NCBI GenBank assembly: GCA_944391755.1
Contig: CALXUT010000040.1
Coordinates: 1-46,033 of the forward strand
Direction of reading: 5' to 3'
DNA from: an uncultured Clostridia bacterium
GTDB taxonomy: Bacteria; Bacillota; Clostridia; TANB77; CAG-508
Length of the DNA stretch: 46,033 bases
Translations under genes and position numbers: made by a program
Part shown: positions 28,235 through 32,038 of the stretch, piece by piece
How positions within the stretch are numbered: position 1 is the first letter of the stretch
Layout of the letters: each line of letters starts with the position of its first letter
The notes under the pieces: generated by a model
Database searches by the model: none
Told to the model about the DNA's origin: nothing
What the model saw: only the letters and a program-made list of their open reading frames with translations

Positions 28235-29092
28235 ATGAAGAAAGCAATATTAGTCTTAGAGGGTGGAGCCATGAGGAGCCTCTATACTTCTGGAGTACTA
28301 GATGTGTTAATGGATAACAACATAGAAATAGAATGTACAGTAGGTGTATCTGCTGGCGCCTTGACTGGTTCCAATTATATCTCTAAACAAAGAGGAAGAA
28401 CAGCCAATATCAATATAGAATATTGTAATGATCCTAAATATATTGGTGTAAGAGCTATCAAAAATAACAAAGGTTTAGTAGGATTTGACTATTTATTTGG
28501 AGAAATTTCGAAATATCAAGTTCCATTTGATGAAAAAACTTATCAGGAATCTAAACAAAAATTTTATATAGGTGCTACTAATTGTTTAACAGGGAAAACA
28601 GAATTTTTTGAAAAAAATAAAGGTGATACTTATAAGATTTTACAAGCATCATCTAGCATGCCAATTGTTTCAAATATTGTGGAAATAGATGATAAACCAT
28701 ATCTAGATGGTGCCATTGAATGTAATATTCCTATTGAATGGGCAAAACAACAAGGATATGAAAAAATTGTAATTGTTTTAACAAGAGATAAAGAATATCG
28801 AAAACAAGAACTAACCAATAATATGAAAAAAGTATACAACTTACGATATAAAAAATATCCTGAGTTAGTAAAAACGATATGTAACAAACCTCAAAAATAT
28901 AATGAAACTGTTGAAGAAATTAATAAATTAGAAGCTGAAGGAAAGGCTTTTGTCATCAGACCACAAAAACCTATTGAAGTTTCAAGATTGGAAAAAAATA
29001 AAGAAAAATTAAAGGCATTATACCAACAAGGGGTTACAGAAATGACAGAAAGACTAGAGGATTTAAAAAAATATTTAGAGGCATCATGCTAG
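28235..29092 (+). CDS. Patatin-like phospholipase
   Basis: A 285-residue lipid acyl hydrolase of the patatin/RssA group. The oxyanion loop E-G-G-A-M-R is at 9-14, the nucleophile S39 is in G-V-S-A-G (37-41) and the catalytic D158 is in D-G-A. No signal peptide or anchor is seen, so it is likely cytoplasmic and acts on membrane or storage lipids. RBS AAAGGAG; it follows tyrS by 41 bases and may be co-transcribed. Confidence 0.9.
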   Translation: MKKAILVLEGGAMRSLYTSGVLDVLMDNNIEIECTVGVSAGALTGSNYISKQRGRTANINIEYCNDPKYIGVRAIKNNKGLVGFDYLFGEISKYQVPFDEKTYQESKQKFYIGATNCLTGKTEFFEKNKGDTYKILQASSSMPIVSNIVEIDDKPYLDGAIECNIPIEWAKQQGYEKIVIVLTRDKEYRKQELTNNMKKVYNLRYKKYPELVKTICNKPQKYNETVEEINKLEAEGKAFVIRPQKPIEVSRLEKNKEKLKALYQQGVTEMTERLEDLKKYLEASC

Positions 29093-29120: not shown

Positions 29121-29190
29121 ACGCAAAATGCTTTATTTTTTTCCAAAATTATGTTATCATAAATATATTGAAAAAGAGAGGTGAGAAAAA

Positions 29191-29292
29191 ATGAGTGAAG
29201 ATCCGTACGAAAAGTCGAAACTGAAAATGTATAAGAATATTTACAAAAAGGGAAATGAAGTAGGAGCTTCATTCGTTTTTTTGTTGTATTAA
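29191..29292 (+). CDS. Leader peptide upstream of mgtE (33 codons)
   Basis: The frame begins ATG with GAGGTGAG six bases ahead, a good RBS. The peptide starts M-S-E-D-P-Y-E-K, continues with a lysine- and tyrosine-rich middle (L-K-M-Y-K-N-I-Y-K-K-G) and ends hydrophobic (A-S-F-V-F-L-L-Y). An acidic-proline start is the trait of MgtL, the Salmonella leader peptide whose E/P/D-rich nascent chain makes ribosomes drop off when Mg2+ is low. The codons CCG, TCG, CTG and AAG are rare in neighbouring genes, which may reflect either a regulatory peptide or constraint from RNA structure. A -10-like TATCAT is at 29155-29160. Confidence 0.5.
   Translation: MSEDPYEKSKLKMYKNIYKKGNEVGASFVFLLY
29254..29282 (+). 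promoter_or_regulatory. Intrinsic terminator inside the mgtE leader
   Basis: AATGAAG (29254-29260) and CTTCATT (29267-29273) form the core stem with a TAGGAG loop, and T7 follows at 29276-29282. AGTGAAG at 29194-29200, the second to fourth codons of the leader ORF, could pair with the same CTTCATT and act as an antiterminator. A longer enclosing stem pairs ATAAGAATATTT (29231-29242) with AAATATTCTTAT (29292-29303). Confidence 0.55.
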
Positions 29293-29333
29293 AATATTCT
29301 TATCCATTTCTAAAATAAATAGGGGGAAAAGAA

Positions 29334-30671
29334 ATGGAATTAGAAGAGATAAAATATTTAGTTGAAAATAAAAGATTTACAGAACTAAAAAATAAGTTAA
29401 AAGACATGAATAGTGCAGATATATCTGAAATCTTAGACGAACTTGATGATGTAGAAAGTGTAATTATTGTATTTCGATTATTGGACAAAGAAAAAGCAGG
29501 AATTACATTCTCGCATATGGAATCAGACATGAGAGAAAAACTGATTCACGCATTTACAGATAGAGAATTAAAAAATGTCCTTGATGAATTATTTATGGAC
29601 GACACAGTAGATTTAATAGAAGAAATGCCATCAAATGTTGTTCCAAAAATTCTAAAAGCAATACCAAAAGAAGATAGAAAAATTGTAAATGAGTTGTTAA
29701 AATATCCAGATGATAGCGCTGGAAGCATTATGACAACAGAATTTATTGACTTAAAAGAAAATATGACAGTTGAAGAAGCTTTAAAAAGAATAAGAAAAAT
29801 TGGAACAGATTCAGAAACCATATATACTTGTTATGTTTTAAATGAAGAAAGAATTTTAAAAGGAATCATCAATATAAAAGATATCTTACTAAGTAAAAAA
29901 GAAACCACAATAGGAACATTGATGGAAACAAACATTATTTCAGTTAATACTTTAGAAGATCAAGAAGAAGTAGCAAAAATGTTTGATAAATATGATTACT
30001 TTGCATTACCTGTTGTAGATCATGAAAATAGATTAGTTGGTATCATAACCGTAGATGATGCTATTAATGTATTACAAGAAGAGGTAGCAGAAGACTTCGA
30101 AAAAATGGCAGCAATTTCACCAACAGAAGATGGCTATTTTGAAACCTCTGTATTTAAACATGCTAAAAATAGAATTGTATGGTTATTAGTTTTGATGTTA
30201 TCAGCCGCTATCACAGGAAATATTATTACACAATATGAAAATGCTTTTGCAGCAGTACCACTATTAGTATCATTTATACCAATGATAATGGGAACAGGAG
30301 GAAATTGTGGCTCACAAAGCTCTACACTTATTATTCGTGGTCTTGCGACAGATGAAATAGAATTAAAAGATATATTCAAAGTACTTTGGAAAGAAATAAG
30401 AGTATCTATAGTAGTAGGTATCGTTTTAGCAATTGTCAATGGAATAAGAATTATGATTCAGTACGATGATATGCAACTGGCAATTGTATTAGGCATCACC
30501 TTAATGGTAACTACGACTATTGCAAAAATTTTAGGTTGCTTATTACCAATGACTGCTAAAAAATTAAAACTAGATCCAGCCATTATGGCATCACCATTAA
30601 TTACTACATTAGTAGATGTTTGTTCAATATTAGTATACTTCCAAGTTGCAACATCTATTATGGGACTTTAA
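29334..30671 (+). CDS. mgtE: Magnesium transporter MgtE, first copy
   Basis: A 445-residue Mg2+ channel/transporter. The cytoplasmic N-domain (1-125) has the superhelical M-N-S-A-D-I-S-E-I-L repeats; two CBS domains (about 130-250) bind Mg2+ and gate the pore; five membrane helices follow from about 280. The pore motif G-T-G-G-N-C-G-S-Q-S is intact. RBS AGGGGG. A leader with an internal terminator precedes it. A paralogue follows after 17 bases, in the same operon. Confidence 0.93.
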   Translation: MELEEIKYLVENKRFTELKNKLKDMNSADISEILDELDDVESVIIVFRLLDKEKAGITFSHMESDMREKLIHAFTDRELKNVLDELFMDDTVDLIEEMPSNVVPKILKAIPKEDRKIVNELLKYPDDSAGSIMTTEFIDLKENMTVEEALKRIRKIGTDSETIYTCYVLNEERILKGIINIKDILLSKKETTIGTLMETNIISVNTLEDQEEVAKMFDKYDYFALPVVDHENRLVGIITVDDAINVLQEEVAEDFEKMAAISPTEDGYFETSVFKHAKNRIVWLLVLMLSAAITGNIITQYENAFAAVPLLVSFIPMIMGTGGNCGSQSSTLIIRGLATDEIELKDIFKVLWKEIRVSIVVGIVLAIVNGIRIMIQYDDMQLAIVLGITLMVTTTIAKILGCLLPMTAKKLKLDPAIMASPLITTLVDVCSILVYFQVATSIMGL

Positions 30672-30688
30672 TAGATGGAGGTGATTTC

Positions 30689-32038
30689 ATGGAATTAGAA
30701 GAGAATATAGAAGAAAAAATAGAAGAATTTATCAAAGAAAAGAAATATACAGAATTGAAAGCACTATTAAAAGAAATGAAAAGTGCGGACATATCAGCAA
30801 TTTTAGATGATTTGAACAAAGAAGAAGCTGTAATTGTATTTAGGCTATTATCAAAAGAAAAAGCCGGAATGACTTTCTCCTATATGGAAACAGATATGAG
30901 AGAGAAATTAATTCAAAATTTAACAGATTCCGAATTGAAAAGTGTGCTAGATGAATTATTTATGGACGACACGGTAGACTTGATAGAAGAGATGCCTTCC
31001 AATGTTGTAACAAGAATTTTAAGAACAGTCAATCGCAATGATAGAAAAATCATAAATGAATTATTAAAATATCCAGATGACAGTGCTGGAAGTGTCATGA
31101 CAACAGAATTTATAGACCTAAGAGAAAATATGACAATAGAACAAGCTTTGGATAGAATTCGCAAAATTGGTACAGACTCAGAAACCATTTATACATGTTA
31201 TGTATTAGATAAAGATAGAATATTAAAAGGAATTATCGATATTAAAGATATATTATTAGCTAAAGAAGATAGTTTGATCCATGATTTAATGGAAACCAAT
31301 ATCATATCTGTAAATACTCTAGAGGATCAAGAAGAGGTAGCAAAAGCCTTTGATAAATATGATTTATATGCATTACCAGTAGTAGATAATGAAAATAGAT
31401 TAGTTGGTATCATAACCGTAGATGATGCTATGGATGTATTACAAGAAGAGGTAGATGAAGATTTTAACAAAATGGCAGCAATATCTCCAACGGAGGATGG
31501 TTATTTCGAGACATCTGTATTCAAACATGCAAAAAGTAGAATTGTTTGGTTATTAGTGTTAATGCTTTCATCAGCAATCACAGGAGCCATTATAACCAAT
31601 TATGAAAATGCCTTTGCAGCAGTACCTGTTCTAGTAGCATTTATTCCTATGATAATGGGAACAGGAGGAAATTGTGGTTCACAAAGCTCTACACTTATTA
31701 TTCGTGGTCTTGCAACTGATGAATTAGAATTAAAAGATGTATTTAAAATTTTATGGAAAGAAATTCGAGTAGCTGTTATCGTAGGTGTCATTCTAGCTCT
31801 TGTAAATGGTTTAAGAATATTCATACAATATGATAGTTTGCAACTTGCAGTTACAATCGGATTAAGTATAACTGTAACCATTATTATGGCAAAATCAATT
31901 GGGTGTTTATTACCACTACTTGCTAAAAAATTAAAATTAGATCCAGCCATTATGGCTGCACCACTTATATCTACCATAGTAGATATTCTTTCAATTTTAA
32001 TATTTTTCCAAATTGCAACCCTTATTATGGGTTTATAA
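30689..32038 (+). CDS. mgtE: Magnesium transporter MgtE, second copy
   Basis: A 449-residue paralogue of the gene just upstream, with the same order: N-domain, CBS pair and five helices with G-T-G-G-N-C-G-S-Q-S. Residues agree at roughly three in four positions by eye, and the DNA around the pore motif is nearly identical, as expected after a tandem duplication, perhaps with gene conversion. ATG at 30689 has GGAGGTGAT; upstream in-frame starts lie inside the first copy. A GGGGAC repeat follows directly after its stop. Confidence 0.93.
   Translation: MELEENIEEKIEEFIKEKKYTELKALLKEMKSADISAILDDLNKEEAVIVFRLLSKEKAGMTFSYMETDMREKLIQNLTDSELKSVLDELFMDDTVDLIEEMPSNVVTRILRTVNRNDRKIINELLKYPDDSAGSVMTTEFIDLRENMTIEQALDRIRKIGTDSETIYTCYVLDKDRILKGIIDIKDILLAKEDSLIHDLMETNIISVNTLEDQEEVAKAFDKYDLYALPVVDNENRLVGIITVDDAMDVLQEEVDEDFNKMAAISPTEDGYFETSVFKHAKSRIVWLLVLMLSSAITGAIITNYENAFAAVPVLVAFIPMIMGTGGNCGSQSSTLIIRGLATDELELKDVFKILWKEIRVAVIVGVILALVNGLRIFIQYDSLQLAVTIGLSITVTIIMAKSIGCLLPLLAKKLKLDPAIMAAPLISTIVDILSILIFFQIATLIMGL

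What the first reader, a model, noticed from the sequence alone, without database searches (positions are those of the whole stretch)
29155..29330. Candidate Mg2+-sensing leader peptide (MgtL-like) with an internal attenuator before mgtE
Upstream of two mgtE genes there is no recognisable M-box, but there is a well-started 33-codon ORF whose second to fifth codons give S-E-D-P. In enterobacterial MgtL an acidic/proline-rich start makes ribosomes dissociate when Mg2+ is low, and this switches on a Mg2+ transporter (established for mgtA/mgtL). Here a terminator (29254-29282) lies inside the ORF. Its 3' arm CTTCATT could instead pair with AGTGAAG at codons 2-4, exactly where a ribosome would sit. 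So ribosome position on the leader could decide between terminator and antiterminator. The peptide mechanism is inference; the ORF, RBS, terminator and the two competing pairings are seen. The rare codons in this segment also allow a purely RNA-based sensor.
Basis: partly seen in the sequence, partly recalled or inferred. Interest (0 to 1): 0.7.

Follow-up and report, generated by a model that had tools for sequence, protein, structure and literature searches.

The report
Leader-peptide switch before magnesium transporter MgtE
A conserved short reading frame lies just ahead of the magnesium-transporter gene mgtE in a group of uncultured Clostridia, and the position of a ribosome on it would likely decide whether mgtE is made, which is predicted to give these bacteria a magnesium gauge that does not use the known M-box riboswitch.

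Summary
The small ORF (29191-29292), its RBS and the hairpin with U-run are real. Seven other genomes carry the same leader before mgtE: six more among the 210 of the genus, one in another genus before a distant mgtE. All eight leaders can form three pairings: uORF start with the terminator's 3' arm (b); uORF codons 10-18 with an anti-start segment, AS (m); AS with the mgtE start region (s). m and s compete. S-E-D-P is not conserved either (P in four of eight, S in four), whereas a rare codon YCG and an acid at residue 3 are. Best reading: a ribosome-position switch working like Salmonella mgtQ/mgtL; its sign and Mg2+ sensing are untested, and for the window itself folding does not show the mgtE start opening. 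Wider: 33 of 124 upstream regions of other clostridial mgtE genes carry a uORF starting M-[DE]-x-G-[SGN]-[SGNC] (antisense 0, shuffled 0.05), and one such uORF precedes mgtA. The window's ORF resembles this class but fails its strict motif.

The parts
29152..29160 (+). promoter-like extended -10 (TG-T-TATCAT), read by eye; it would start the transcript about 24 nt before the uORF
   Evidence: sequence; a similar TATGGTATCAT stands ahead of the L045 leader; the consensus scan does not list it
29177..29185 (+). Shine-Dalgarno of the leader ORF (GAGAGGTGA region)
   Evidence: a purine-rich SD precedes the uORF in all 8 leaders
29191..29292 (+). leader ORF, 33 codons, MSEDPYEKSKLKMYKNIYKKGNEVGASFVFLLY
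   Evidence: homologous uORFs in seven other genomes
29185..29204 (+). arm b5 (SD spacer and uORF codons 1-5) of pairing b
   Evidence: duplex prediction; MFE
29263..29282 (+). arm X: partner of b5, and 3' arm plus U-run of the local hairpin
29254..29282 (+). local hairpin with U7 (weak intrinsic-terminator-like), inside the uORF
   Evidence: sequence; -7.3 kcal/mol; not listed
29225..29241 (+). arm m5 (uORF codons 12-17), AAATG-T-ATAAGAATATT, can pair with AS
   Evidence: 4 of 40320 partner permutations reach the observed total over 8 leaders
29293..29311 (+). AS, anti-start segment AATATTCTTATCCATTTCT: pairs with m5 or with the mgtE start
29321..29338 (+). mgtE Shine-Dalgarno (AGGGGG) and start; AGAAATGGA (29330-29338) pairs with TCCATTTCT of AS (pairing s)
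   Evidence: MFE (18 of 40320 permutations)
29334..30671 (+). mgtE, first copy
   Evidence: TIGR00400 509.5 bits; Pfam MgtE, MgtE_N, CBS
30689..32038 (+). mgtE, second copy, 17 nt behind the first, so probably in the same transcript
   Evidence: TIGR00400 502.1 bits; Pfam

Best explanation
The conserved reading frame at 29191-29292 overlaps RNA segments that can pair in mutually exclusive ways, and the position of the ribosome on it would likely switch the downstream mgtE on or off. Seen directly: the uORF with its RBS, the complementarities b (uORF start with X), m (uORF codons 10-18 with AS) and s (AS with the mgtE start region) in eight leaders, and that m and s share AS. Predicted by folding with ribosome-sized masks: without a ribosome, or with one at codon 12 or 16, b and s prevail in most leaders and the mgtE start is covered; with a ribosome on the first codon b cannot form and m becomes available, which frees the mgtE RBS clearly in three leaders and slightly in a fourth, not in the window. 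Inferred: in low Mg2+ ribosomes pause or fall off at the start-proximal acidic residue(s) and rare codons (codon 5 YCG, codons 8-11 CTG), keep the m state and raise MgtE; complete translation restores b and s and lowers MgtE. That is the logic of Salmonella mgtQ, reached with unrelated sequence. The weak terminator inside the uORF probably adds a transcriptional layer in some members, the window among them.
For: Leader before mgtE in 8 genomes of two genera, with two distant mgtE types (MgtE by TIGR00400 for window, L134 and L082). Pattern search over the genus: 7 of 210 genomes, reversed control 0. Own-partner energies beat swapped partners: 88 (b), 4 (m), 18 (s) of 40320 permutations. Frame open through the hairpin in 8 of 8, chance about 0.08 each. 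Masked folding: P(b) 0.84-0.99 in 6 of 8 without ribosome; P(m) 0.49-0.82 in 7 of 8 with the P site at codon 1; P(m) 0 in 8 of 8 at codons 12 and 16. Two or more rare codons among codons 2-12 in 7 of 8, against 2.3% of 11-codon gene windows. No Rfam match (L045, L046, L053, L056, L059). Precedent: mgtQ (PMC8092293).
Against: In the window, L045, L053 and L056 the mgtE RBS is no more open in any masked state (window 0.55 in all). L053 shows almost no m (0.05-0.09), L045 has m 0.61 already without a ribosome, and with the P site at codon 5 m is only 0.16 in L082 and 0.23 in L134. b and m together would be a pseudoknot, which the program cannot score. By plain pair counts the covariation is modest: 171 (b) and 32 (m, six leaders) of 2000 arm swaps reach the observed number. 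None of the tests corrects for relatedness. Acidic residues in positions 2-8 number 3, 3, 3, 1, 2, 2, 2, 2, few for ribosome destabilisation. Patterns used to find further leaders demanded CG at codon 5. Nothing here measures Mg2+.
Confidence: 0.5

Rival explanations
1. Opposite-sign attenuator: a ribosome on the first codons blocks pairing b, the local terminator forms and mgtE is off; ribosome drop-off in low Mg2+ lets b form and transcription goes on.
For: Hairpin with U7 in the window; local hairpins of -5.7 to -7.7 kcal/mol in the window, L045, L046, L053, L056; b and the hairpin exclude each other; b prevails without a ribosome in 6 of 8.
Against: b pairs with the 3' arm beside the U-run and could itself act as a terminator; no local stem in L134; four U only in L059 and L082; does not explain the competing m and s pairings.
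Confidence: 0.2
2. Pure RNA sensor: the leader folds directly in response to Mg2+ or another ligand, and the ORF is incidental.
For: Codon 5 YCG and CTG fixed at the nucleotide level; strong pairings.
Against: Start, RBS and an open frame in 8 of 8; the by-eye promoter leaves about 24 nt before the uORF; no compact conserved aptamer seen; no Rfam match.
Confidence: 0.15
3. Codon- or tRNA-sensing attenuator: the rare codons YCG and CTG make ribosome speed report charged tRNA or general translation, and Mg2+ plays no part.
For: CCG is 5 and TCG 18 of 9592 codons in 28 window genes, yet codon 5 is YCG in 8 of 8; CTG in 7 of 8.
Against: The codons differ in amino acid (P or S); the regulated gene is a Mg2+ transporter in all eight.
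Confidence: 0.1
4. Chance: an open frame and fortuitous complementarity in AT-rich DNA kept by common descent.
For: AT-rich sequence; only eight leaders; permutation tests not corrected for relatedness; most relatives with MgtE lack the leader.
Against: Arms change together across two genera and two distant mgtE genes; reversed-pattern control 0 of 210; z -4.3.
Confidence: 0.05

Closest known systems
mgtQ leader ORF of Salmonella mgtB (PMC8092293; outline and passages read)
   Same: small ORF before a Mg2+ transporter; alternative stems, one hiding the transporter's RBS; acidic codons near the start; ribosome position decides which stem forms
   Different: 8 codons in an intergenic region of a P-type ATPase operon; no sequence similarity sought or seen; ours has 29-36 codons, hides the uORF start in pairing b, and carries a hairpin with U-run in some members
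MgtL leader peptide of enterobacterial mgtA (PMC11282234; passages read)
   Same: leader ORF, acid (and in the window proline) at codons 2-5, Mg2+ transporter downstream
   Different: EPDP motif and Rho-dependent termination in mgtL; here proline is not conserved and no Rho site was examined
M-box riboswitch RF00380
   Same: controls mgtE; found before mgtE in three relatives (L081, L096, L110)
   Different: no match in the window or in the five leaders tested
mgtE motif of Thioalkalivibrio (PMC11109978; passages read)
   Same: structured leader before mgtE with SD and start codon in a stem
   Different: reported only in Thioalkalivibrio and classed as a riboswitch candidate; not aligned here
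M. tuberculosis M-box with a small uORF (PMC12810186; search listing only)
   Same: Mg2+-related leader with a uORF
   Different: built on an M-box; the window has none

Membership tests
MgtL (mgtA leader peptide) | leader ORF before a Mg2+ transporter gene | tested here: met
MgtL (mgtA leader peptide) | EPDP-like acid/proline codons 2-5, conserved | tested here: not met
   window has SEDP, but P in only 4 of 8 leaders
MgtL (mgtA leader peptide) | Rho-dependent termination controlled by translation | not tested
   no Rho-site analysis made
MgtL (mgtA leader peptide) | ribosome drop-off in low Mg2+ | not testable with these tools
   needs translation assay
mgtQ | alternative stems that hide or free the transporter RBS | tested here: inconclusive
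   complementarities m and s in 8 of 8; RBS opening predicted in 3, slightly in a fourth, not in the window
mgtQ | acidic codons near the start | tested here: met
   acid at residue 3 in 8 of 8; could also follow from pairing b
mgtQ | 8-codon ORF between mgtC and mgtB | tested here: not met
   33 codons before mgtE
M-box riboswitch RF00380 | covariance-model match at gathering score | tested here: not met
Intrinsic-terminator attenuator | stem plus U-run before the gene, conserved | tested here: not met
   present in the window, weak's rule, no local stem in L134, U4 in L059 and L082
Clostridial M-[DE]-x-G uORF class (described here) | strict start motif M[DE].?.?G[SGN][SGNC] | tested here: not met
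   none of the eight window-type uORFs (sequences) fits; L056 MDEGSK comes nearest

The most novel reading that the evidence does not exclude
Clostridia have their own large class of Mg2+-sensing leader peptides: uORFs starting M-[D/E]-x-G-(S/G/N)-(S/N) before mgtE, and also before the unrelated Mg2+ ATPase gene mgtA, in which the first codons make the ribosome falter when Mg2+ is low; in the sample seen here it is commoner than the M-box, and the window's SEDP leader is its AT-rich, RNA-elaborated offshoot.
Probability: 0.4. Interest if true: 0.88.

Novelty: new variant of a known kind. Interest (0 to 1): 0.74.

Why it matters
In the papers read here, sensing Mg2+ through the stability of a translating ribosome is described for enterobacterial P-type ATPase genes (mgtA, mgtB). 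A leader of like logic before mgtE in Clostridia, with unrelated sequence, would mean that this way of sensing arose more than once or is wider than known. The M-[DE]-x-G class adds dozens of natural leader peptides on which start-proximal ribosome destabilisation can be tested directly, and explains how many mgtE genes without an M-box might be controlled.

Tried and rejected
Peptide search of the 33-aa ORF in 55 genomes found only the window's own copy convincingly (13 of 55 with E up to 1; all others E 0.029 or weaker). Covariance model R1: one search gave one weak hit besides the window (L126, E 0.04), not followed up beyond a look at its sequence; one search gave L082, which proved true, and L046, and many weak hits that were not used. 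A general scan for anti-start segments that also pair elsewhere, over 93 upstream regions, does not separate true leaders from GC-rich background. The same test on 28 of the 33 members of the M-[DE]-x-G class (those with stop to mgtE up to 170 nt) gave weak mean z (s -1.2, m -0.8), so the RNA switch is NOT shown for that class; L122, L146 and L149 have m z of -3.4 to -3.8. Riboswitch and tRNA-sensing readings: see rivals. Paper searches listed no paper on an mgtE leader ORF in Clostridia that I recognised; only open-licence PMC papers are held. Papers: PMC8092293 outline and passages; PMC11282234, PMC11109978, PMC12288461, PMC6429828 passages only; PMC12810186 listing only.

Limits and dropped rows. 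Patterns demanded CG at codon 5 and a TCA-N-TC-like X, so leaders without them would be missed; codon 5 was not so constrained when the window, L045, L046, L053, L056 and L059 were found, but it was for L134, and L082 came from a model built on such leaders. Minus-strand loci were first read unoriented and re-oriented, where L027, L028, L030, L034 and L040 were skipped; L039 and L041-L043 were not read. The m core count leaves out L046 and L134. Codon rarity uses the window's genes for all eight leaders. The strict motif was fixed after hits had been seen, so its controls judge the regular expression, not a blind prediction; the 124 regions are L107-L124, L134, most of L135-L164 and L165-L244, ranked by likeness to one MgtE, not a random sample; none of the uORFs printed for nearer relatives (L022-L106) fits it. 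The genome-wide pattern also gave 2 hits with its reversed control against 12 real ones. Rfam was run on 20 loci each and on all 80 of L165-L244, not on every region. Shuffles are first-order Markov samples.

Full report
What is there. The window holds two tandem mgtE genes (29334-30671, 30689-32038; TIGR00400 509.5 and 502.1 bits). No Rfam family reaches its gathering score in the window. The leader folds better than shuffles (z -4.3; five relatives -1.7 to -3.6). A promoter-like extended -10 at 29152-29160, read by eye and not listed, would start the transcript only some 24 nt before the uORF.

Relatives. MgtE homologues were fetched from genome contigs (80 of 135 loci kept) and from 97 genus genomes (22 with a match at E 1e-20). 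L045, L046, L053 and L056 showed the same leader, then L059; a covariance model gave L082, where the leader stands before the first of two mgtE genes (TIGR00400 502.8 bits). A DNA pattern over 210 genomes of the genus returned seven genomes, the window and these six leaders, with 0 hits of the reversed control. In a 390-genome family sample one more appeared in another genus (L134), before a distant MgtE (TIGR00400 317.1 bits). A 31-genome search of that genus and a 385-genome order sample gave no further ones. So the leader is rare: many relatives have mgtE behind another gene or behind an M-box (L081, L096, L110).

Pairings. In the window b joins 29185-29204 with 29263-29282, the core of m joins 29225-29241 with 29293-29309, and s joins 29303-29311 with 29330-29338, which holds the mgtE start codon. 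m and s compete for AS. For each helix, pairing every leader's arm with its own partner was compared with all 40320 permutations of partners: 88 (b), 4 (m) and 18 (s) reach the observed total energy. Plain pair counts are weaker: 104 of 112 cells paired for b and 62 of 66 for the m core (six leaders), reached by 171 and 32 of 2000 arm swaps. Relatedness is not corrected for. L134, of another genus and with another mgtE, still has b (15 bp), m (12 bp) and s (16 bp) with different letters.

Terminator. The local stem is absent in L134 and the U-run is four long in L059 and L082. Pairing b takes the 3' arm next to the U-run, so it is not a classical antiterminator; in L134 b is the only stem seen before a U-run. 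What all eight share is that the uORF start can be hidden by X and the mgtE start region by AS.

Peptide or RNA. Residues 2-5 are SEDP, GEEP, SEDP, NEGP, DEGS, TDGS, SEGS, SDDS. The acid at residue 3 is constant, but b alone could keep it. Codon 5 is CCG or TCG in 8 of 8, although CCG is 5 and TCG 18 of 9592 codons in 28 window genes; CTG, another rare codon, stands at codons 8-11 in 7 of 8. How far the searches themselves demanded this is told under Tried and rejected. Two or more rare codons fall in codons 2-12 in 7 of 8 leaders, in 2.3% of 11-codon gene windows, and in 1 of 28 gene starts. RNA pairing and slow codons are thus constrained more clearly than an E-D-P peptide. The frame is open through the hairpin in 8 of 8; chance for one is about 0.08.

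Mechanism. Folding with a ribosome-sized mask: without a ribosome P(b) is 0.84-0.99 in 6 of 8 (L045 0.02, L053 0.10). With the P site at codon 1 P(m) is 0.49-0.82 in 7 of 8 (L053 0.05); at codon 5 it is 0.49, 0.62, 0.91, 0.09, 0.81, 0.64, 0.16, 0.23 (window, L045, L046, L053, L056, L059, L082, L134); at codons 12 and 16 it is 0 in all. The mgtE RBS opens at codon 1 in L059 (0.20 to 0.71), L082 (0.13 to 0.69), L134 (0.20 to 0.50) and slightly in L046 (0.54 to 0.59), but not in the window, L045, L053 or L056. A ribosome on codons 1-5 covers b5 and leaves m5 (codons 10-18) free. This resembles the published logic of Salmonella mgtQ, where acidic codons 2 and 5 destabilise the ribosome and the mgtB RBS is freed (PMC8092293); drop-off at EPDP of mgtL in low Mg2+ is described in PMC11282234. 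That Mg2+ acts so on the window leader is inference.

Wider class. A scan for uORFs upstream of 89 distinct mgtE starts showed a second set in distant Clostridia, for example MDTGSSSHNKPGGR and MDAGNGGKPGRSS. A class-wide search found MgtE (E 1e-80 or better) in 220 of 381 genomes; upstream regions of 80 listed places were fetched. Over 124 distinct regions a strict motif, M[DE].?.?G[SGN][SGNC] in a uORF of 12-60 codons with an SD, occurs in 33 sense, 0 antisense and on average 0.05 Markov-sampled regions; the 25 hits with family labels come from nine families. Codon 2 is GAC 21, GAT 5, GAG 5, GAA 2, so the acid is kept while the wobble base varies. With no demand on residue 2, 31 of 34 are D or E. 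Among the 80 newly fetched regions 21 have the strict uORF and 6 an M-box, none both; elsewhere L143 has both an M-box and a related uORF, MNAGSS.

Specificity. A pattern for the start of this class in 391 genomes gave 12 places, against 2 for its reversed control. Five precede mgtE (G777 and G790 by the places, G609 by Pfam, G903 and G944 by TIGR00400; the mgtE of G903 is read in two frames). One (L251/L257, G959) precedes a full-length Mg2+-translocating P-type ATPase (TIGR01524 1195 bits, cut-off 610.75; MgtA structure 9ejn E 1.9e-162 on a fragment). For the other six no Mg2+ transporter was recognised by eye among the ORFs. The window's leader fails the strict motif; MDEGSKKSS (L056) and MSEGSADKL (L082) resemble it, so descent from one class is possible but not shown. 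The RNA switch is not shown for the wide class.

Verdict. The terminator/antiterminator reading is secondary and partly wrong; the MgtL analogy holds for the logic, not as membership. Sign and ligand remain to be tested.

Noticed in passing
L143:1085-1244 (M-box) with a uORF at -172..-76 of mgtE; L138:3082-3236 (minus strand) with a uORF at -142..-55: M-box and a small uORF (MNAGSSGDIKPPNLC..., MVADSTGNDIKPPNLC...) stand together before mgtE; L136 has a like uORF (MNASGSGDIKPPNLC...). The shared DIKPPNLC is striking.
   Followed up: partly
L251:1513-1741, L257:488-3193: A uORF MEAGSSSGTKSDELGSKKNV... precedes a full-length mgtA-type Mg2+ ATPase gene, a transporter unrelated to MgtE.
   Followed up: partly
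L023, L024, L047 upstream of mgtE: These relatives lack the uORF but keep an ATCCATTTCT segment able to cover the mgtE start (s-type hairpin); it also matches a stretch of the upstream gene (z about -4).
   Followed up: no
L176, L179, L181, L188 uORF codons 4-6: The conserved codons GGA GGT (A/N) look like an internal Shine-Dalgarno and can pair with a CTTCCTACC-like segment ahead of mgtE.
   Followed up: partly
L197, L209, L212, L217, L219: M-E-x-G-S uORFs lie 315-352 nt (stop to mgtE) away, much further than the others; what fills the gap was not studied.
   Followed up: no
window 29334-32038; L082:1611-4338: Two tandem mgtE genes behind one leader, in the window and in L082; some distant genomes also have two adjacent copies.
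   Followed up: no
window 28235-29092: Patatin-like phospholipase gene with a DUF6363 domain directly upstream of the leader.
   Followed up: no
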